From the IMG/VR virus record IMGVR_UViG_3300010368_000140, positions 1 through 21,512 of that record: a DNA stretch of 21,512 bases. One strand, written 5' to 3'. The stretch comes from a virus. Made by a program: the position numbers and the translations under genes. A model generated the notes under the pieces. The model was given only the letters and a program-made list of their open reading frames with translations, was not told where the DNA came from and made no database searches. The stretch's first letter is position 1. Each line of letters begins with the position of its first letter. Of the stretch, positions 4,898 to 21,445 are shown in pieces.

Positions 4898-7800
4898 TTA
4901 TAACATCTCCCATGACATTTCATTGCCCATCTGCCGCAGTATATACACCTCGCCACCTGCCCCTATCGCCCGATCTGGATTAAATGGATCTTGTCTTGCG
5001 CCAGGCGGTAGTGAGGGGCGCGTGCCGTCAAGTGTTGAATAATCTGTGCTGTCAAAGGTTCCGTCACCGCTACCCGTATCTGTTGTGTTGGTAGTAGTGG
5101 TTCCACTGATGATGCCATCTAACAGTTCATTAAGGATTTGGTTGCGTTGCTCTGTATTGAGAAAACCCGATTGTGCCAGTGCCAACGTCTGCTGCACATC
5201 CAAGTCCCTAATCTCACGATCAAATCCAGTGCCGGCACGCTGGTCTGCTCTGCCCGATAGCGTTGGTTCTCCATCTACGCGACCAAAAAGCGCATCCTGT
5301 AAAGCGCGTTCGGCCCGACTCTCTGCGCCCTGCGATGCGGCAAGGTCTTGCTCGATGGCTCTTGATTGCAACGTCTGCGTTGGTGCTTGGTTATATCCGC
5401 GCGCAAAAAACTGTCCCGTTGCATCTGCTTCCGATAACCTGCGCTGAAGATCAGCCGTTGCTAAGTCGGACGATAACGCCTGTGCAGCACGAAGATCCGC
5501 TGCCGTTTGTAGACCCCTATTTGCAATCGCATTTATTATGTCTTGCTGTGTTAGTTGCTGTCGTCGCCGGCTATCAGCTGAAGCAATCTGTCTATTCAAC
5601 CGCTGCGTCAATAAATCATCGCGCGCCTGTTCGCCGGCCAATGTTTGTATAGGATCGCCCGTTTGACCCGTTTGCACCTGACCGAAGAGAATAGACTCTA
5701 ACTGCTGCTGTGCTCGTTGGTCGTTGGCACGCGCCAAGTCCTCTTCTAATCCCATCGCACGCCCTGCCAACGTATCCACAGGTGCTTGATTAGCTGCATC
5801 AAAAAACTGACCCGTCACCCCAGCTTCTGCTAACCTGCGCTGCAAGTCCTGTGTCACCAGGTCAGATCGAAGTGCATCAGCCGCACGTTCGTCTGCACTG
5901 CGCGCCAAGCGTCTGCTTTCCGCTGCGCCTACCAAATCAGATCCCAATGCCTGTGCAGACCGCAAATCTGCCGCCTGTGCCAATCGACGCTGTAAATCTG
6001 CTGTAGTCAGATCACTCTGCAGCACTTGGCCGGCACGCTGGTCTGCTGCGTTTGCCAATGCGCGCTGTTGGGCAGCTGTTGCTAAGTCTGACCCCAACGC
6101 TTGCTGTGATCGTAAATCTGCTGCTGCTGCCAGTGCGCGCTGCTGTGCCGCCGTCGAAAGGTCACTGCCCAATGCCTGACCAGCACGTTGATCGCCAGAG
6201 AGTGCCAACCTGCGCTGCAGTTCAGCCGTAACTAAGTCTGATTGTAATCCACGCTCTTGCCTACTGGCATCGTCCATTGCCAACTGACGACCCAAGCGTT
6301 CGGTCTCTAACTGTGCAAGCTGACCCTGGCGGCCAAACACATCTGCGCGCGCCTGACGCTGCATCTCTTGATCGGCTAACCCCAACTGATCTACGCGCGT
6401 CTGCAACCCTAATGCTTGAGATATTGCATCGCCGGCAAGACCTGCCCCTAATGCTTGCCTGTTGTCCATCTGCGCCGACAGACCGGCCACATCGCCAATA
6501 GCTGCCCTTGCCAAATCCTCATTGGCTAATCGCAGATTGTCGCGCCGACCTTCAAAGTTCAACGCGTCATTTATCGCCTGTGTTTGTAGGTCATACCCTA
6601 ATGCGTTTATGTCGTTTAATGTGCGTTCACGCGACCCGATAAAATCACCAAACGCCTCTGCTGTATCGCCGCTTCGCAGCACACCCAAGCGATTTAAGTT
6701 TTCGCGTAATTGTCGTTGCTGGTCTTCGCTGCGCCGTAGAAAGTCCGCACGCTGTTGCTCTATAAGTGGGTTGCTGCCACCACTCAAGCGATCAAGTATG
6801 GCCTGTTCAGCCTGTTGGGTAAGGTTAGTATCGAGCAATACGCCCGTATTGTTCAGCCTGTTTCGTGCCGCCACCATTGCCTGATCTAAGTCAGCACCAG
6901 ACCCCAATGGATCGCCCTGCAGCCGGTCTAATACGTTCTGCTGCGCTGCATCTGTTAAGTCCGAGCCAGTGCTTACCAGTTTGCCGGCACGTACTTGGTT
7001 TAACAGTGCTTGGTCAGCTGCCATCGCGCCGTAATCGTTCCGCGTTGTGCCGATGCCTGTTCCCGTTCCCACCTTCAATGCGTCATCAAACCCCAATGCG
7101 CCATACGGCGTTGCTACTCCCGTTCCCGGATCAATCGCAGTCGCACCAGTCATATCAACTGGATCGATACGGGTTAGGTCTGCGCGTGGTTGGTTGTAAT
7201 CACCTATTGCAGTGCCGGGTGTAAGGCCAAGACGCTTCATCGCGTCCGACATCGTTTCGCCCTGCACGTTATTAAGGTTCGATGCTGTTATATTTTCCTC
7301 ACCTATTGCAGTGCCAGGCGTAAGGCCAAGGCGCTCCATCGCGTCTGCGTACGATTCACGGTCGCCCATCGCACCATCGCCGCCGCCTATACCTGTGCTA
7401 CCACTAAACCCACTCAAATCTGGCCGTGCTGGATCATCACCAGCTAATATTTTTGCGTATTCATCCGCCGACATTGGCGGTGCTGGAGCAGGTGGCGTAT
7501 ACGGCGTACTAGTGCCACTCGCATACGGATCAAATATTGGTGGTGGAGCAGGTGGCGGTGTATACGGCGTACTTGTCCCACTCGCATACGGATCAAATAT
7601 TGGTGGTGGTGGCGTATACGGCGTGCTTGTCCCACTCGCGTATGGATCAAATATTGGTGGTGGTGGCGTATACGGCGTGCTTGTCCCACTCGCGTATGGA
7701 TCAAATATAGGTGGTTTAGATGATGCAGGCGGTGTATACGGTGTACTAGTGCCACTGGCGTATGGATCATCAGGATCATCAACCCCAACAGCTTTAAATA

Positions 7801-7912
7801 GATTGTTAACAGCTGGGGTGCTGGTTCCACTCGCATATGGATCAAATATTCTTTTCTCTTTCCTTCGCGTTATCGGTGTGCTGCTGCCACTTGCATATGG
7901 ATCGTATGCCAT
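4898..7912 (-). CDS. Repeat-rich structural protein with DPYASGTSTP motifs and 25-residue helical repeats (1004 aa)
   Basis: The start ATG overlaps the TAA of the tail-hub gene by one base (TAATG). Three regions can be seen. (1) Residues 4-137 hold seven copies of DPY-A-S-G-T/S-S-T-P separated by Pro-rich linkers such as YTPPPPIF, probably extended and flexible. (2) Near residues 187-225 the block RLGLTPGTAIG occurs twice. (3) Residues 556-705 form six tandem 25-residue units (LxSDLxTAxxQRRLAxAxDxR type), and a seventh stands at 813. A longer module ending in LFG[QR]V occurs at 681-746 and again at 813-879. The C-terminus is Gly/Thr/Asp-rich and ends WEML. The length and repeats suggest a rod-like virion component acting with the hub or the ejection proteins, but I do not recognise a family. 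Confidence 0.75.
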   Translation of the reverse strand: MAYDPYASGSSTPITRRKEKRIFDPYASGTSTPAVNNLFKAVGVDDPDDPYASGTSTPYTPPASSKPPIFDPYASGTSTPYTPPPPIFDPYASGTSTPYTPPPPIFDPYASGTSTPYTPPPAPPPIFDPYASGTSTPYTPPAPAPPMSADEYAKILAGDDPARPDLSGFSGSTGIGGGDGAMGDRESYADAMERLGLTPGTAIGEENITASNLNNVQGETMSDAMKRLGLTPGTAIGDYNQPRADLTRIDPVDMTGATAIDPGTGVATPYGALGFDDALKVGTGTGIGTTRNDYGAMAADQALLNQVRAGKLVSTGSDLTDAAQQNVLDRLQGDPLGSGADLDQAMVAARNRLNNTGVLLDTNLTQQAEQAILDRLSGGSNPLIEQQRADFLRRSEDQQRQLRENLNRLGVLRSGDTAEAFGDFIGSRERTLNDINALGYDLQTQAINDALNFEGRRDNLRLANEDLARAAIGDVAGLSAQMDNRQALGAGLAGDAISQALGLQTRVDQLGLADQEMQRQARADVFGRQGQLAQLETERLGRQLAMDDASRQERGLQSDLVTAELQRRLALSGDQRAGQALGSDLSTAAQQRALAAAADLRSQQALGSDLATAAQQRALANAADQRAGQVLQSDLTTADLQRRLAQAADLRSAQALGSDLVGAAESRRLARSADERAADALRSDLVTQDLQRRLAEAGVTGQFFDAANQAPVDTLAGRAMGLEEDLARANDQRAQQQLESILFGQVQTGQTGDPIQTLAGEQARDDLLTQRLNRQIASADSRRRQQLTQQDIINAIANRGLQTAADLRAAQALSSDLATADLQRRLSEADATGQFFARGYNQAPTQTLQSRAIEQDLAASQGAESRAERALQDALFGRVDGEPTLSGRADQRAGTGFDREIRDLDVQQTLALAQSGFLNTEQRNQILNELLDGIISGTTTTNTTDTGSGDGTFDSTDYSTLDGTRPSLPPGARQDPFNPDRAIGAGGEVYILRQMGNEMSWEML
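5798..6247 (-). repeat. Six tandem 25-residue helical repeats
   Basis: Residues 556-705 of the 1004-residue protein align as six units of exactly 25 residues. Each has L-x-S-D-L near the start, Q/S-R-R/A-L in the middle and an A-D-x-R type end, for example LGSDLATAAQQRALANAADQ. The last unit changes after its LQRRLAEA core into GVTGQFF. Twenty-five residues equal two heptads plus one hendecad, a spacing compatible with a long coiled coil or helical bundle. The DNA copies have diverged, so the array is old and kept at protein level. Confidence 0.9.
7502..7903 (-). repeat. Seven in-frame coding repeats of a 10-residue motif
   Basis: This stretch encodes seven copies of DPYASG[TS]STP at residues 4, 24, 49, 71, 89, 107 and 128 of the 1004-residue protein. 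The spacing shrinks to a regular 18 residues in the middle. There, two 54-base units (7591-7644 and 7645-7698) are identical, and the next 10 bases match again before diverging. The outer copies differ by synonymous changes and by linker length. Exact inner copies with diverged outer ones indicate recent slippage or unequal recombination in an older array. All copies keep the reading frame. Confidence 0.95.
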
Positions 7913-13887: not shown

Positions 13888-14355
13888 TTAGTCGTTGTTG
13901 TCCGTGAACAACCCTGGACTGTCTACGCTTCTGTTTAGATCGCCTGTTGCGCCCTTGTCTACCTTGTCCCAATCAATCTGATCCATGATCTCTTCAACAC
14001 TATCGGCTGCCAACGTCTGTGCGCCGGCGCGCCTTTCCATCTGCGCTTTCTGTGCATCGTATGTCTCAGCCTCGATTTGGCTGCGCGTCTTTTGATCGCC
14101 CTCTTCTAACCCTAACGCCTTCAACTTAGTGCGCTTGTCTGTGGCGTGTTCGTAATACATACCCGTCTGTGGGTCAGGCATAGCTTGGTTATGGCCCTGC
14201 GTAGACATCAGCCTATTAAATGCGCCCATCGAGCCAAAATTTATGGTCGATATCTCGCCGCACTCTGGACATTCGCGCTTCTTCATAGGCCGGCCAGTGT
14301 AATACACATCCATCTCTGCATGGCCTAATCCGCATATGTAGTTATGTGTTGGCAT
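13888..14355 (-). CDS. Zinc-ribbon protein, FmdB-like (155 aa)
   Basis: The N-terminus shows C8, H12, C29 and C32 in the arrangement YICGLGH-x(16)-CPECG, a short zinc ribbon with His as one ligand in place of Cys, similar to small FmdB-type ribbons seen in many phage head modules. The remaining 120 residues are helical and charged, with ALGLEEGDQKTRSQIEAE and VEEIMDQIDWDKVDKG. It starts at an ATG after GGGTGA and faces the plus-strand gene head to head. Such ribbon proteins occur next to terminase, portal and scaffold genes in many phages, but their task is unknown; nucleic-acid or protein binding is plausible. Confidence 0.72.
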   Translation of the reverse strand: MPTHNYICGLGHAEMDVYYTGRPMKKRECPECGEISTINFGSMGAFNRLMSTQGHNQAMPDPQTGMYYEHATDKRTKLKALGLEEGDQKTRSQIEAETYDAQKAQMERRAGAQTLAADSVEEIMDQIDWDKVDKGATGDLNRSVDSPGLFTDNND

Positions 14356-14414: not shown

Positions 14415-14594
14415 ATGAGTCAAGCAGCTATTGGTTCAGCCCACGATGACCCTGTTTTGGACTACATGATCCGTAATAATATGGATCTACACGCCGATGT
14501 TTATTTAGCGTATGCTTACCCCGATGGCGTGCCAGATGATGTTGATCCAAAAGACATTTTACCTGATGAGTTATTAGGCACACTTACTGATTAA
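14415..14594 (+). CDS. Small acidic phage protein encoded on the opposite strand (59 aa)
   Basis: This is the only convincing plus-strand gene. It reads MSQAAIGSAHDDPVLDYMIR and continues with NNMDLHADVYLAYAYPDGVP and an acidic DPKDILPDELLG end. This layout (a 'V-x-x-Y-M-x-x-N' helix, a 'Y-L-x-x-A-Y-x-D-G-x-P' turn, and an acidic 'L-P-x-E-L' tail) matches small proteins of 50-70 residues that I know from many phages near the packaging genes, function unknown. I chose the ATG at 14415; an upstream in-frame ATG at 14346 would add a basic segment that overlaps the neighbouring start and does not fit the family. No strong ribosome site is visible. Its last 11 bases overlap the end of the 799-residue protein's gene. 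Confidence 0.68.
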   Translation: MSQAAIGSAHDDPVLDYMIRNNMDLHADVYLAYAYPDGVPDDVDPKDILPDELLGTLTD

Positions 14595-16983
14595 CCCAAT
14601 CTGGTAAATCAACGCCGCCCGATATTCTCAGCACTTCCTTCTGTAAATCTTCCAGCGTCATGTTGCCCTTTCTAAAGTTTTGAAACACTTCATTGACGCT
14701 TGCTTGAAACTTTTTGTCCCTCTTTTGCTCTGGACTATACATTCCACGCACGCCTTCCCAAGTAACCGATTGTATTTGCCGTGGCAGCATACCTTCTTGA
14801 GTAGCTAAATCACGATACGCCTCTGCGTGCATTGGATACGTACCTTGCACCCCTATTGGCTTAGACGCAGATACGTTTTGACCTAAATTGTGTGAAACTT
14901 CAGGTGAACTACCAGATAAAGGACGCAACAAGCCGGCAGCTACTGCGTGCGTGTCCATTGTCACATCGCCGTATATCGCATCTGGATCAACTATGTTGTT
15001 ATAAAAATTCCTAACCTTGTGCTGCATACCCATAGTGCGGCTTATGTTTTCCATAGAACCGTCATCGAACACCTTGACAGCTTTTGCTATGTCTGCAAAC
15101 GACCCCCAACCAGCGCGTGCATTATTCCCGTCCGCTTTTTTTACTACATCTCCAAAATCGCCTTCTGGTGTAAGTATTCTATAACCTCGATCACGCGTTG
15201 TTTCGTCAAACGCACGCAACCATAACGCTTTCTCTACCGGGTCAACTATCTCTTCTAATCGCTTACCCCTGATATTGTCTATCGCCTGCCGCCAATCCGC
15301 AGAACGTTTCGTAGCTGGCTCCTTGTAAAAATTAGAATCCAGCCATTCCATCATTTCTTTTGTATTTGCAGCAGATTGGTGGTTTTTCATTGTGTCCATC
15401 ACACGTTCAGCTAATGTGACGTTTTTAAACCAATCCATCTGCGGCGATAACGCAGCCATAATGCCGGCAGATTGTTCGGTTGATAACCCATACCGCTGCC
15501 CAAACTCGTTTGCTACCTTGTTTGCTCCGTCATACCATTGCATAGCGCGGTCACGCACTTCGGGCGGCATTTGGTCAAATATGAAACGCAGATTGGATAT
15601 TTCATGATCCTTCATAGCTTCGATTATCTCATCTGCATCGCCACGCTTCACTACTTGTTCCGGGATGTTGGGATACTCTGATATGGTCTGCACCAACTTG
15701 CCAGTCAGCTTCGGATCAGACCGCATGACATCTGTGTCTATAATTAAATTTTCCGTCAATGGGTCTTCTGTAGCTGTAGCACCCATTGGAAACCGTTGGC
15801 TTATGCGCGCGCCAGGTTCATTTTCAAGAATTTTTGCGTAGGCTGTAGCTTCGCCCGGATCTGACAACAAATCGCCGGCTTTTGCTTTTGTAGACGCATC
15901 AACAATATCCTGTGCTTGCTTCGACATCTTTGATGTGCTGCCAGTTGCCTTATTAAAAAATTCAAGCAAACCGTCTTTGTCTTCTTCTAATTGTGCTGCA
16001 AATTCTACCATTTTCTTAGCTGATACTTCTTCTGGCGATGCAGCATACGCATCAAAATCACCTTTAAGTGCTTGTTCTGCACCCTGTACTTGTCGGCCTT
16101 TCAATTTTCGTAGCGTGTGCGCGCCTTCTTCTAATATTGTCCCTACTATTTTATTCTTTTTAATGTCAGCATCATTACTAAGAAAAATAGCCGGCTGTCC
16201 TTTATAACTGCCCGATGCGCCAAAAAAATCAACATCGCCTAAGTCTACTTTTTTACCTTTATGTACAGGAGTGTTTAATATGATTATGGGCGTGTTAAGA
16301 GCATCTGAATACAATTCTCTAACCTTTTTCCCAATAATAAAATCACCTAATACTAAACCTGTTTCACCCTCTGCTTCATTTTGTAATCTTTCAGCTACAC
16401 CAAAATCATATTTACCGCCACCAGTTCTATAAAAGAAATGGTCAAAATCGCGCGAATCTTTTGCTATTTCTGAAAACGTTTTTTCTGCTATGCTTTCTCT
16501 TACATCAGCACGTTTAGACGCATCAACAATATCCTGTGCTTGCTTCGGCATCTTCGGCATCTTGCTCATCATGGCTGCTGCGCCTATGCCGCCCATAAAC
16601 TTGCCGGCTTTCCCTACCACTGGAACAGCATCCTCTACGCCTACAAATGCGCCTAACCCCTTATCCAACACATCTTGCTCTAATCCCTGAACCAATGCGC
16701 TTGCCACTGCGCCAGGTTGCTCAGTAACCGCAGAAACGATGTCGGGTAATGTGCGTCTTGCTTGCCGGCCTAATTGCTCTGCTTTGTCCAGCTGACCAAT
16801 CGACCCGACCACATCAACGCCCGTCTGTATCCCTTCGCCTATAGACTTAGCCACGCCGCCCGGCGTTTTTAGTATGATCGCTTCCAACAATCGCTGTAAA
16901 CGCTCTTGCTCGTCTGTAAGCGGTTGCATCCCACGATTGCCAGATGCAAATGCCGGCGTTATGTCACCGCGAAATTGGTTCAT
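14584..16983 (-). CDS. Mosaic virion-associated protein with zincin-like insert (799 aa)
   Basis: The start overlaps the portal stop (TAATG). Residues 1-145 are helical with Gly/Ala-rich stretches (TPGGVAKSIGEGIQTGVDVV; FMGGIGAAAMMSKMPKMP), like virion-packaged proteins. Residues about 157-353 form a separate domain with FIIGKKVRELY, SYKGQPAIFLS and TILEEGAH (E285-H289) followed by E318/E319, the layout of a zincin metallopeptidase in which the first ligand His is Glu. The segment KQAQDIVDAS stands on both sides of it (residues 147 and 355). Residues about 460-760 form a second domain with YGLSTEQSAGIMAALSPQMD, KVRNFYNNIVDP and VTMDTHAVAAGLL. This recurs in phage proteins as a domain of unknown function (I recall DUF7178, unchecked) and faintly recalls HhH-type DNA glycosylases. 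Encoded between portal and scaffold, it may be packaged cargo or a morphogenesis factor. Confidence 0.75.
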   Translation of the reverse strand: MNQFRGDITPAFASGNRGMQPLTDEQERLQRLLEAIILKTPGGVAKSIGEGIQTGVDVVGSIGQLDKAEQLGRQARRTLPDIVSAVTEQPGAVASALVQGLEQDVLDKGLGAFVGVEDAVPVVGKAGKFMGGIGAAAMMSKMPKMPKQAQDIVDASKRADVRESIAEKTFSEIAKDSRDFDHFFYRTGGGKYDFGVAERLQNEAEGETGLVLGDFIIGKKVRELYSDALNTPIIILNTPVHKGKKVDLGDVDFFGASGSYKGQPAIFLSNDADIKKNKIVGTILEEGAHTLRKLKGRQVQGAEQALKGDFDAYAASPEEVSAKKMVEFAAQLEEDKDGLLEFFNKATGSTSKMSKQAQDIVDASTKAKAGDLLSDPGEATAYAKILENEPGARISQRFPMGATATEDPLTENLIIDTDVMRSDPKLTGKLVQTISEYPNIPEQVVKRGDADEIIEAMKDHEISNLRFIFDQMPPEVRDRAMQWYDGANKVANEFGQRYGLSTEQSAGIMAALSPQMDWFKNVTLAERVMDTMKNHQSAANTKEMMEWLDSNFYKEPATKRSADWRQAIDNIRGKRLEEIVDPVEKALWLRAFDETTRDRGYRILTPEGDFGDVVKKADGNNARAGWGSFADIAKAVKVFDDGSMENISRTMGMQHKVRNFYNNIVDPDAIYGDVTMDTHAVAAGLLRPLSGSSPEVSHNLGQNVSASKPIGVQGTYPMHAEAYRDLATQEGMLPRQIQSVTWEGVRGMYSPEQKRDKKFQASVNEVFQNFRKGNMTLEDLQKEVLRISGGVDLPDWVNQ
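15891..15923. repeat. 33-base direct repeat, copy 2 (downstream edge of the inserted cassette)
   Basis: These 33 bases are identical to 16515-16547. After one mismatch six further bases match. The copies are 624 bases (208 codons) apart, so both are read in the same frame and give KQAQDIVDAS with its preceding Met-Pro or Met-Ser. This copy precedes TKAKAGDLLSDPGEATAYAK, which probably continued the ancestral protein before the cassette arrived. Confidence 0.95.
16515..16547. repeat. 33-base direct repeat, copy 1 (upstream edge of the inserted cassette)
   Basis: This is the partner of the copy at 15891-15923 and encodes residues 147-156 of the mosaic protein. Perfect identity over 33 bases, including every silent position, within a gene whose other parts share nothing with each other, means that the duplication is recent or is kept alike by recombination. 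The DNA between the copies is markedly AT-richer. Confidence 0.95.
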
Positions 16984-19100
16984 TAGCTACGCGCTTGTGC
17001 CTCTATCACATCCGATGTGCGCTGCGCGTTTGATCGCACCTGCGCCATTAGATCCGTTTCGCCTGTACTAGCTGCAGCGGCTCGACCTGCACTAACAGGC
17101 CCGGCTGATTCGCCCTGCTGTGATTGCTGTGCGGCCTGTTGATGCTGCTGCATATGCTGTTGCATCTGTTGATCAAGTGCTTGTAACTGCTGTATGGCCT
17201 GCGGATTAGCCGGCCGCCCCACCATATCGCGCGCCTGTGCTTGCATTTGCAGCTGCACATAGACCTGATGCTGTTGGTATTGCGCGTGAACGCCCATGTG
17301 CGCTTCGTGGTCTTGCTCTGGCAGCACTTCAATAGGTACGCCCTGCATCACCCGGTCATTCTCGTATTGTGCAGCGCGCTCTGCTTCCACGTTGCTCATA
17401 TCCCGTATAACCGAATCCACATCTTGTATGCCATTTGCCACGGCAGCTAACTTGTCGATTTCCATCTGGTCATAGTTGGGACGCTGCGCCGCATAGGAGA
17501 CAAACGCCATCGTGCGATCACGCTCTAACTGTGCATAAAGCGGTTGCGTGCTGCCCGTCTTGGTTTCGATGCGATAGTTATACAAGAAATCGCTGGTGCG
17601 TAGTGCGCGGATCACTCGATCATCCCCGTCTGGCGCAACGTTTTCGGCAAAGTTTTCTGGTGTGTATCTTGGATCGCCCATTATTTGAAAAGCATTCCGC
17701 ACGATACCCTCGTAAAACCCATTTACAGCCGCTTCCATCCACTGCCCGTTGATCTGTGCAGCTGCAGCCACTACTGCCGCTTCTGTTGCACTGTCCGTTG
17801 AGCCGGCAGCCGGCGGTTGTAGTGCAGCTATCTCGCGCTCCATGCCCATAACCATGCTGAAATAGTTATACACATCCGGCGGCACGCTTCCCCAGGCTAT
17901 TTCACGAAAACTGTTCAGGTCTTCTAACCCGATCACCTCACCGTCACGGCCTGTGCGTAAGGTTTCGCCTAATTCGGGATTCTGCTCCAATTCTGCGTTG
18001 GATACTGCTGCCATACGCGATGTACGTTTGAGCATATCCGAAATGCGCGATGTTTGTTCAATGATCGCGTTTTGTAGATCCTCCAAATACTTCAAATGAC
18101 CTTTGGGGTAAAACGTTTCGGCACTCAGATCAAACTTGATGCACACAAACGGAAACCCCTGCTCAACCAACCACCCGGGTTGGTCTACCCCGTTATCCAG
18201 GTCTAACACAGGCTCAGTTGGTTCGCCGGTATCTGGATCAATATCAAAGACGGGTTGGTTAAAGGTGTCTACCACTTGTGGGAACACCATCTTGCGATAC
18301 GGGTGCGGTATATCTTTGATCGGCTTGTCTACGCCGGCAGCAAACGTCACTTCGCGCCGTTCGACCCTCATGTGCCACCGCTCCAGCTGCACAAACTCGC
18401 CATTAGAAATAGCGTCTGTGATAGCCTGTTGCTCTGCGCTATCGTATCGCGCGCCCATCAGATCGCCATACCCCAGCTTGTCTTCCTTCGACATGGCCGT
18501 AGGCTTGATGCTCTTTTTGTTCTGAATGGTGGGATCGTCTAACAGAAACTTGAGCGGAACCCAAAACTTTTCACGGATATAGCGTTTATCGCCCAACCTG
18601 TGTGGACTGCCGGTGGGATCAACGTGAACACAATGCGGTGCAACGCGCGATGCTACAACTAAATCTTCGGCCATATCGTCGTTGGTGACGTATGGAGCAA
18701 TAATGTCATCGCCTACTGGGTTATAGTCGAGTCTGACCCAACCCACGCCGGTAAACAGCGCGTCGAATATAGCTTGATGTACGTGTGATTTGAGGTTGCA
18801 AATTTTCATCCAGCTGGCACTGGCACGCTCTAATATCTCTGCAACACCCTGGTTTACTTCATCGTCCACACTGAATGATTGCACCGGGTAATTGTGGGCA
18901 ATCGTGCCGAGGATCTGACGAACAATGGGGTAAAAACGCGAAACCTTTACGACATCTTCGCTTCGCAGGTCGCGTATGCGCTTATCAAACTTCAAGTCGT
19001 ATGCGTCATATAGCTTCTGCCATTCGTCGGCCCGTTCTTTATAGAGCCGGTCAAGCATCTGACCTTCTGACTTATACCATTTAACTTCGTATCTGTTCAT
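16983..19100 (-). CDS. Portal protein (P22-type, 705 aa)
   Basis: The portal forms the dodecameric ring through which DNA enters and leaves the head. Size (705, P22 gp1 has 725) and layout agree: an N-terminal helical clip/wing region with YKSEGQMLDRLYKERADEWQ and SEDVVKVSRFYPIVRQILG, then HQAIFDALFTGVGWVRLDYN, VAPHCVHVDPTGS, an LKYLEDLQNAIIEQTSRISD helix in the stem region and YFSMVMGMEREIAALQPPAA (crown side). The C-terminus is strongly Gln-rich (QQMQQHMQQHQQAAQQSQQG), forming a barrel or flexible tail. It lies directly after the large terminase gene, 16 bases from its stop. The start ATG at 19100 is the only suitable one; AAGGA lies 13 bases before it, a rather long spacing. Confidence 0.92.
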   Translation of the reverse strand: MNRYEVKWYKSEGQMLDRLYKERADEWQKLYDAYDLKFDKRIRDLRSEDVVKVSRFYPIVRQILGTIAHNYPVQSFSVDDEVNQGVAEILERASASWMKICNLKSHVHQAIFDALFTGVGWVRLDYNPVGDDIIAPYVTNDDMAEDLVVASRVAPHCVHVDPTGSPHRLGDKRYIREKFWVPLKFLLDDPTIQNKKSIKPTAMSKEDKLGYGDLMGARYDSAEQQAITDAISNGEFVQLERWHMRVERREVTFAAGVDKPIKDIPHPYRKMVFPQVVDTFNQPVFDIDPDTGEPTEPVLDLDNGVDQPGWLVEQGFPFVCIKFDLSAETFYPKGHLKYLEDLQNAIIEQTSRISDMLKRTSRMAAVSNAELEQNPELGETLRTGRDGEVIGLEDLNSFREIAWGSVPPDVYNYFSMVMGMEREIAALQPPAAGSTDSATEAAVVAAAAQINGQWMEAAVNGFYEGIVRNAFQIMGDPRYTPENFAENVAPDGDDRVIRALRTSDFLYNYRIETKTGSTQPLYAQLERDRTMAFVSYAAQRPNYDQMEIDKLAAVANGIQDVDSVIRDMSNVEAERAAQYENDRVMQGVPIEVLPEQDHEAHMGVHAQYQQHQVYVQLQMQAQARDMVGRPANPQAIQQLQALDQQMQQHMQQHQQAAQQSQQGESAGPVSAGRAAAASTGETDLMAQVRSNAQRTSDVIEAQARS

Positions 19101-20963: not shown

Positions 20964-21059
20964 TCACGCGTATAATGCTATGTGATCCGCTATGCGCTCT
21001 TTCAGCCGGATCTGCTTGCCAGTTCGCCGGCGCAACCACTTATACACTAGTACGACCAT
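20964..21059 (-). CDS. Possible 31-residue basic ORF
   Basis: An ATG at 21059, overlapping the last codons of the M15 peptidase gene in another frame, opens MVVLVYKWLRRRTGKQIRLK and ends IADHIALYA before a TGA. It fills the otherwise empty gap before the small terminase gene. Hydrophobic start, basic middle and the gap-filling position are in favour. Against it: the only G-rich stretch (AGGGG) is one base before the ATG, too close for a good ribosome site, and nothing is known of such a peptide. It may be an accidental frame. Confidence 0.3.
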   Translation of the reverse strand: MVVLVYKWLRRRTGKQIRLKERIADHIALYA

Positions 21060-21445
21060 ACCCCTGGCCGAATATCCGAGTCCACGGTATCCAGATGCAG
21101 AAACCGCGTCTGGTAATCACCCGATTGCGACACGCCAATACCTGAAAATCCTAACGCCAACGCAGCAGTTAAAATCTTGTGCGCCTTGCTGCCCATACAC
21201 TGCACATCAATCGCTTTGCCCTGTGCGTGCGCCCCAACAGTAGACTTCTTGGCCTCGATGGGATGATCCGGCGATCTGTATCCACTGGTGATAACCAACG
21301 GTTCACCGACCAAAACGCGCAATTTCTGCACTTTGTCCATAAAGTCGGGATCAATATCGCACTCGCCCGTATGCTGGCACGCGATCTCTATAAACGAGAA
21401 ATTAGGCCACTGATCTGTGGGCCATGTGTCTTCAGTGTATTTCAT
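21047..21445 (-). CDS. M15-family peptidoglycan peptidase (132 aa)
   Basis: This is a zinc DD-carboxypeptidase/endopeptidase of the Peptidase_M15 type. Motifs: NFSFIEIACQHTGECDID (start of the fold), PLVITSGYRSPDHP (residues 49-62), H73 and D80 in GAHAQGKAID as zinc ligands, and H117 in FLHLD as third ligand. All expected ligands are present. There is no signal peptide and no cell-wall binding domain, so it is a minimal 132-residue enzyme that needs a holin or acts inside the virion. It is the first gene of the block, just before the small terminase, which suits a lysis gene leading the late operon. The ATG at 21445 has no clear ribosome site but is preceded by TATATATAAT. Confidence 0.87.
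   Translation of the reverse strand: MKYTEDTWPTDQWPNFSFIEIACQHTGECDIDPDFMDKVQKLRVLVGEPLVITSGYRSPDHPIEAKKSTVGAHAQGKAIDVQCMGSKAHKILTAALALGFSGIGVSQSGDYQTRFLHLDTVDSDIRPGVWSY

What the first reader, a model, noticed from the sequence alone, without database searches (positions are those of the whole stretch)
15891..16547. In-frame domain cassette bracketed by exact 33-base direct repeats in a virion-associated gene
Two identical 33-base stretches (16515-16547 and 15891-15923) lie exactly 208 codons apart inside the 799-residue gene. The DNA between them is about 33-35% GC in three 60-base lines that I counted, against about 43-50% in the flanks. The protein between them is a self-contained zincin-like domain, and removing one repeat plus the domain would leave a continuous frame joining KQAQDIVDAS to TKAKAGDLL. 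This is what a recently acquired, exchangeable domain would look like, with the repeat acting as a recombination target. It suggests that the phage swaps cargo domains in a protein made next to the portal.
Basis: partly seen in the sequence, partly recalled or inferred. Interest (0 to 1): 0.82.

Follow-up and report, generated by a model that had tools for sequence, protein, structure and literature searches.

The report
Swappable cargo slot beside phage portal
Next to its portal (DNA-entry) gene this environmental phage has a gene with a constant front part and replaceable enzyme domains behind it; close relatives carry completely different domains or none, so these phages appear to exchange payload domains in a protein that is probably packed in the phage head.

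Summary
In detail: an exact 33-bp direct repeat (39/40 when extended) lies 208 codons apart, in frame, around a segment of GC 0.374 and GC3 0.23. The core interpretation also holds: this is a replaceable-domain slot. Near-identical sister phages (portal 98%, MCP 97-99%) keep the ~156-residue N-module but carry ART or GNAT cargo. Others carry a methyltransferase in the same slot (L002), two tandem N-module genes (L009), or no insert (L006/L007/L010). Synonymous divergence shows that the insert, and the C-terminal DUF7178 domain with its small neighbour gene, moved separately from the backbone. Two points are weaker. The repeat looks more like a scar (relic of a second N-module 3' end, 40/40 to sister L034) than a dedicated recombination site. 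'Zincin' is unproven (EEGAH, not HExxH). The C-module most resembles HhH-GPD 8-oxoguanine glycosylases and is often paired, on either strand, with a small protein that travels with it. Packaging and injection are inferred. Closest known kinds are polyvalent proteins and MuF polymorphic toxins; this is a new variant with an N-module that matches no known family.

The parts
16516..16983 (-). Constant N-terminal module (residues 1-156), starting right after portal
   Evidence: Conserved 55-95% in sister phages with different cargo; no Pfam or PHROG match
16515..16547 (-). Repeat copy 1: the 3' end of the N-module, encoding (P)KQAQDIVDAS
   Evidence: Exact 33-bp match to copy 2; 39/40 extended; part of the N-module in the relatives
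15925..16515 (-). Inserted low-GC domain, residues 157-353 (EEGAH; zincin-like by motif only)
   Evidence: Only homologue found is in L009, 79% aa identity; GC3 0.23; absent from L006/L010 and a methyltransferase in its place in L002
15891..15923 (-). Repeat copy 2, relic of an N-module 3' end, encoding (S)KQAQDIVDAS
   Evidence: Window 15893-15932 matches the N-module end of sister L034 at 40/40, better than copy 1
14584..15891 (-). C-terminal module, DUF7178 (PF23802), HhH-GPD 8-oxoG-glycosylase-like
   Evidence: Pfam E 3.9e-27; pLDDT mostly above 90; best structural match 3knt Z 8.9, AGOG and OGG1 next; K656 and D677 conserved in 37 of 38
14415..14594 (+). Small acidic protein gene (59 aa, net charge -11), convergent and overlapping the end of the C-module gene; linked partner of DUF7178
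   Evidence: HMM homologues sit at the end of DUF7178 genes on either strand in many phages and essentially nowhere else in the fetched loci; absent in sisters lacking the C-module; 1/37 synonymous differences to L002 against 242/461 in portal
16983..19100 (-). Portal gene, left-hand conserved flank of the slot
   Evidence: phrog_156 portal; 98% aa identity to the L033/L034 group
13888..14355 (-). Zinc-ribbon-like gene (CxxC pairs by eye, no Pfam match), right-hand conserved flank of the slot
   Evidence: DNA similarity to L034 resumes at 14355 with 96.8% identity; no Pfam hit

Best explanation
The gene is a portal-adjacent cargo carrier. A constant ~156-residue N-terminal module, probably the part that places the protein in the head or ejection apparatus, is followed by a slot in which effector domains are exchanged between phages by recombination. 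In this phage the slot holds an AT-rich 197-residue domain (possibly a degenerate zincin) and a DNA-glycosylase-like DUF7178 domain that travels with a small acidic partner gene. The 33-bp repeat is the 3' end of a second N-module, left when an N-module-plus-domain unit was fused in front of the DUF7178 part, either by deletion between tandem N-module genes of the kind seen in L009 or by recombination at the N-module end. Shown: constant and variable parts, an insert-free allele, replacements at the same boundary, separate histories of cassette and backbone, and the pairing of DUF7178 with the small gene. Inferred: packaging and injection, the fusion route, and all biochemical activities.
For: Same N and C modules joined without insert in L006/L007/L010. 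N + methyltransferase + C in L002 (Methyltransf_11 at its cut-off). Sisters L033/L034/L036/L037 with ART-PolyVal-type cargo and L039/L040 with GNAT. Window versus L034: ~94.6% DNA identity through terL, portal and N-module, none over the cargo, 96.8% again from the zinc-ribbon gene. L009 has two tandem N-module genes, one with the same inserted domain. In a more distant lineage a methyltransferase-like segment sits at the N/cargo boundary in L114 and is absent in L099. Discordant synonymous divergence: window/L009b insert 0.34 versus adjacent N-module 0.64 (p 5e-6) and portal 0.54 (p 6e-5); window/L002 C-module 0.28 and small gene 0.03 versus portal 0.53 (p 6e-11, 2e-10). Cargo GC3 is 0.23-0.43 against ~0.55 in portal, and the C-module stays near 0.42-0.43 even on the GC3 0.69 backbone of L006. 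Copy 2 matches the L034 N-module end 40/40. L039/L040 keep a 71-nt relic (93%) of an ART-type gene end, mostly past the GNAT stop codon.
Against: No direct evidence of packaging or injection. The 33-bp repeat and its junctions occur in no other fetched contig, so the fusion route rests on a single case. Several N-module relatives are near-duplicates, so independent events are fewer than contigs. Low GC3 may itself reduce synonymous differences somewhat.
Confidence: 0.72

Rival explanations
1. The repeat is an active recombination target: the 33-40 bp ends are maintained so that the domain can be looped out or swapped in and out.
For: Exact in-frame repeat; deletion between copies gives the architecture seen naturally in L006/L010. 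The N-module end is the point where cargo changes in several relatives.
Against: No other cassette in the family is flanked by such repeats, and no second N-module end was found inside other cargo. No recombinase is tied to the site. Ordinary homologous recombination in the long shared flanks (portal, N-module, zinc-ribbon gene) suffices.
Confidence: 0.15
2. The repeat is a target-site-like duplication made when a mobile element or repair of a staggered break inserted the domain.
For: Direct repeats flank a compositionally foreign insert.
Against: No transposase, homing endonuclease or intein family in the insert. Copy 2 matches the L034 N-module at two sites where copy 1 differs, though later mutation of copy 1 could also explain this. 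The same domain follows an N-module in L009b without a duplicate.
Confidence: 0.08
3. The window gene is an assembly chimera joined at a shared 33-40-mer.
For: Environmental contig; neither junction of copy 2 was found in another viral contig.
Against: The frame is intact over 799 codons. Genes on both sides of the junction (portal; zinc-ribbon, scaffold, MCP) match the same sister group. The modular exchange conclusion does not depend on this junction.
Confidence: 0.06
4. An ordinary virion gene that has diverged in place, with the low-GC segment under relaxed constraint rather than exchanged.
For: Ejection and polyvalent proteins vary strongly in sequence and size (PMC8954989, PMC5512222).
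Against: Non-homologous replacements between phages with 98% identical portals, and an insert-free allele. The insert evolves under purifying selection (dN/dS 0.30 against L009b).
Confidence: 0.02

Closest known systems
Polyvalent proteins of phages and conjugative elements (Iyer et al. 2017, PMC5512222)
   Same: Encoded beside virion genes; ART (PF18760 ART-PolyVal), GNAT and methyltransferase domains occur in the same slot in relatives; that paper already raised cassette-like recombinational variability for one kinase-bearing locus and proposes injection with DNA.
   Different: Here a short constant N-module and one exchange boundary are resolved between near-identical phages, with an insert-free allele. 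The window gene itself has no established polyvalent domain, and that paper's main text does not mention glycosylases.
MuF polymorphic toxins (Jamet et al. 2017, PMC5576092)
   Same: Gene directly after portal, constant N-terminal domain, variable effector domains including ART, and a small ORF next to the gene.
   Different: The N-module has no Pfam MuF match; the slot accepts internal as well as terminal domains; the small gene can lie on the opposite strand.
HhH-GPD DNA glycosylases (OGG1, archaeal Ogg2 and AGOG)
   Same: The predicted fold of the C-module matches these best; a Lys and a DTH-type Asp are conserved.
   Different: About 10% identity, moderate Z, fused to a virion-region protein; activity unknown.
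Ejection proteins of podoviruses (review PMC8954989)
   Same: Swapping of a functional domain among internal virion proteins is known (peptidoglycan-hydrolase domain between T7 gp16 and gp15 homologues).
   Different: There one entry-related domain changes carrier; here unrelated enzyme domains replace one another behind a constant N-module.

Membership tests
Polyvalent proteins | Two or more domains of disparate biochemical activity in one polypeptide | tested here: inconclusive
   Window: glycosylase-like C-module plus a domain of unproven nature. Relative L002 has methyltransferase + DUF7178.
Polyvalent proteins | Carries a domain of the described polyvalent set (e.g. ART-PolyVal) | tested here: not met
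   Window gene: only DUF7178 in Pfam. Met by genes in the same slot of relatives L033, L034, L103 and L104.
Polyvalent proteins | Encoded among late virion genes | tested here: met
   Between portal and scaffold/MCP
Polyvalent proteins | Packaged in the virion and injected with DNA | not testable with these tools
   Needs virion proteomics and an injection assay
MuF polymorphic toxins | N-terminal MuF domain | tested here: inconclusive
   No Pfam match for the N-module up to E 10; the MuF3/MuF4 profiles of PMC5576092 were not available
MuF polymorphic toxins | Gene immediately downstream of portal | tested here: met
   Portal 16983-19100 abuts 14584-16983 on the same strand
MuF polymorphic toxins | Toxic C-terminal domain with an immunity gene | not testable with these tools
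   A linked small gene exists; toxicity and protection not tested
Zincin-like metallopeptidases | HExxH zinc-binding motif | tested here: not met
   EEGAH in both known copies
Zincin-like metallopeptidases | Zincin fold | tested here: inconclusive
   Model pLDDT 34; profile comparison with zincins from related loci, E 0.09 (motif only) and 0.25
HhH-GPD DNA glycosylases | HhH-GPD fold | tested here: inconclusive
   15 of the 16 best structural rows are OGG/AGOG/MutY-type glycosylases, best Z 8.9 over 181 residues, but the model is mostly helical so this Z is moderate; Foldseek E only 0.065
HhH-GPD DNA glycosylases | Catalytic Lys of the hairpin and downstream Asp | tested here: inconclusive
   K656 and D677 conserved in 37 of 38 sequences; their superposition on the OGG active site was not examined

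The most novel reading that the evidence does not exclude
The N-module is a general head-targeting or ejection tag and the locus is a dedicated payload slot. DUF7178 plus the small acidic gene is a mobile effector-inhibitor pair, in which a glycosylase-like enzyme acts on DNA after injection and the small protein restrains it in the producing cell.
Probability: 0.3. Interest if true: 0.75.

Novelty: new variant of a known kind. Interest (0 to 1): 0.57.

Why it matters
It is a compact natural experiment: near-identical phages that differ mainly in one payload region beside portal, plus an insert-free allele in a relative. That makes testable how phages exchange effectors that are probably injected, and supplies a candidate short N-terminal module for loading proteins into phage heads. 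It also links DUF7178, a family of unknown function, to a DNA-glycosylase-like fold and to a conserved small partner gene.

Tried and rejected
Structure of the inserted domain alone (2 sequences): pLDDT 34, unusable. PDB profile search with it: none. Homologues of the insert in annotated phages and in genome contigs: none; in viral contigs only L009. Profile comparison with zincins from giant polyvalent relatives: inconclusive. N-module in annotated phages: none. Intein, transposon or homing-gene insertion: no such family in the insert. Junction sequences of copy 2 in other viral contigs: none. Whole-model Foldseek against PDB gave no significant E-value; the VIA second look was more informative. 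The shared C-terminal YTANEE of several cargo genes was first taken as a protein tag, but it ends right before the next gene's start and may simply hold that gene's ribosome-binding site. An N-module tree was unresolved and one row was misframed, so it was not used; the portal tree from the same call was sound. Papers on DUF7178: none held.

Full report
OBSERVATION. The two 33-base stretches are identical, 624 bases (208 codons) apart, in frame in the 799-aa minus-strand gene 14584-16983. The match extends to 39/40. Codon-shuffled versions of the gene reach at most 18. The segment between the copies is GC 0.374 and GC3 0.228, against 0.53/0.51 before it, 0.46/0.43 after it, and a window mean of 0.509 (sd 0.038); it is among the lowest-GC stretches of its size in the contig.

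RELATIVES. A scan of viral contigs gave 80 loci. L006, L007 and L010 have the same N and C modules joined directly (592 aa): the insert-free allele. L002 has N + a methyltransferase-like segment (Methyltransf_11 exactly at its cut-off) + C. L033, L034, L036 and L037 have the N-module at 94-95% identity followed by an ART-PolyVal-type protein (Pfam-tested in L033 and L034). L039 and L040 have a GNAT (Pfam-tested in L039). L009 has two tandem N-module genes, the second carrying the same inserted domain as the window (79% aa identity) followed by an ART-like segment just under the Pfam cut-off. All sit between portal and the zinc-ribbon-like gene.

THE EXCHANGE IS LOCAL. Against L034 the window keeps about 94.6% DNA identity through terL, portal and N-module, loses similarity at the N-module end, and regains 96.8% at the zinc-ribbon gene. 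The portal tree groups the window with L033, L034 and L036, so its nearest backbone relatives carry unrelated cargo. Synonymous differences show that pieces moved separately. Window/L009b: insert 0.34, its adjacent N-module 0.64, portal 0.54. Window/L002: C-module 0.28, small gene 0.03 (1 of 37 sites), portal 0.53, zinc-ribbon 0.58; the contrasts tested are significant. Sliding identity to L002 is 97-98% over the C-module end and small gene and drops to 78% in the zinc-ribbon gene. The C-module keeps GC3 0.42-0.43 on backbones of portal GC3 0.55 and 0.69. L039 and L040 retain a 71-nt, 93% relic of an ART-type gene end that runs past the GNAT stop codon.

THE SAME SLOT IN WIDER RELATIVES. Portal-based retrieval shows the pattern further out. 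L114 has a methyltransferase-like segment (by sequence resemblance; Pfam E only 0.15) at the N/cargo boundary where L099 has none. L101-L104 carry ART-type cargo after a 32-37% identical N-module. L106, L108 and L112 carry an unknown cargo after an L003-like N-part. Roseobacter phage CRP-738 gp40 has another N-part, a similar methyltransferase-like segment, and the C-module.

WHAT THE REPEAT IS. Copy 1 is the normal 3' end of the N-module. Copy 2 with its flank (window 15893-15932) matches the N-module end of sister L034 at 40/40, two positions better than it matches copy 1. In L009b the same domain follows its N-module with no duplicate. The simplest reading is a scar: an N-module-plus-domain unit became fused to a piece of a second N-module gene carrying DUF7178. 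The tandem arrangement in L009 is a plausible intermediate (inference). Two diagnostic sites are suggestive, not conclusive. Loop-out between copies would give an L006-type architecture, so a functional role cannot be excluded, but no other family member examined has such repeats.

WHAT THE DOMAINS ARE. The insert has no database match. Its EEGAH lacks the first histidine of HExxH; profile comparison with real zincins from giant polyvalent-like relatives was inconclusive, with only the motif aligned in one case. It is under purifying selection (dN/dS 0.30). The C-module is DUF7178. The predicted model is confident (mostly pLDDT above 90), and 15 of the 16 best structural rows are 8-oxoguanine/MutY-type DNA glycosylases (3knt Z 8.9). 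K656 and D677, a plausible Lys/Asp pair, are conserved in 37 of 38. The small gene at 14415-14594 (+) has homologues at the end of DUF7178 genes in 24 of 48 deduplicated groups at E below 0.01 (4 further weak), convergent in some and co-directional in others, and essentially nowhere else in the fetched loci. Four homologues measured had net charges from -2 to -11.

HOW IT MOST LIKELY WORKS. By position (after portal, among virion genes) and by analogy with polyvalent proteins and MuF toxins, the protein is probably packaged and delivered with the DNA; the N-module would be the delivery part and the rest the payload. This is inference. What is shown is modular exchange.

KNOWN OR NEW. Polyvalent proteins and MuF toxins already describe portal- or virion-linked multidomain effectors, and cassette-like variation has been raised for one polyvalent locus (PMC5512222, PMC5576092). 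New here are the N-module without a known family, the insert-free allele and non-homologous replacements resolved between closely related phages, and the mobile DUF7178-small-gene pair.

LIMITS. Relatives include near-duplicates. The window junction is seen in one contig only. There are no expression or virion data and no function was tested.

Noticed in passing
14415-14594 (+): Small acidic gene (59 aa, net charge -11) convergent with and overlapping the end of the 799-aa gene; homologues sit at the end of DUF7178 genes on either strand across many phages, and it is nearly identical at synonymous sites to L002 while the flanks are not.
   Followed up: yes
L039 2873-2943; L040 3645-3715: Relic, mostly untranslated, of an ART-type gene end (93% over 71 nt to L009) spanning and following the GNAT stop codon: a footprint of cargo replacement.
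   Followed up: partly
L009 4001-7163: Two tandem genes each beginning with an N-module, with different cargo; the second N-module is the more divergent one.
   Followed up: partly
7484-7910: Repetitive segment with seven copies of a ~36 nt unit (54-75 nt spacing) at the 5' end of the 1004-aa gene, coding the motif DPYASGTSTP.
   Followed up: no
L088 10520-18627: Sister phage genome encodes a sigma-70-like factor, an SSB, an HTH regulator and a DNA-repair-exonuclease-like phosphoesterase.
   Followed up: no
L106, L108, L112 (gene after portal): An 874-910 aa cargo protein with no Pfam match (tested in L106) follows an L003-like N-part in the same slot.
   Followed up: no
21047-21445 (-): Peptidase M15-type gene (PF08291) upstream of the terminase genes, possibly the endolysin.
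   Followed up: no
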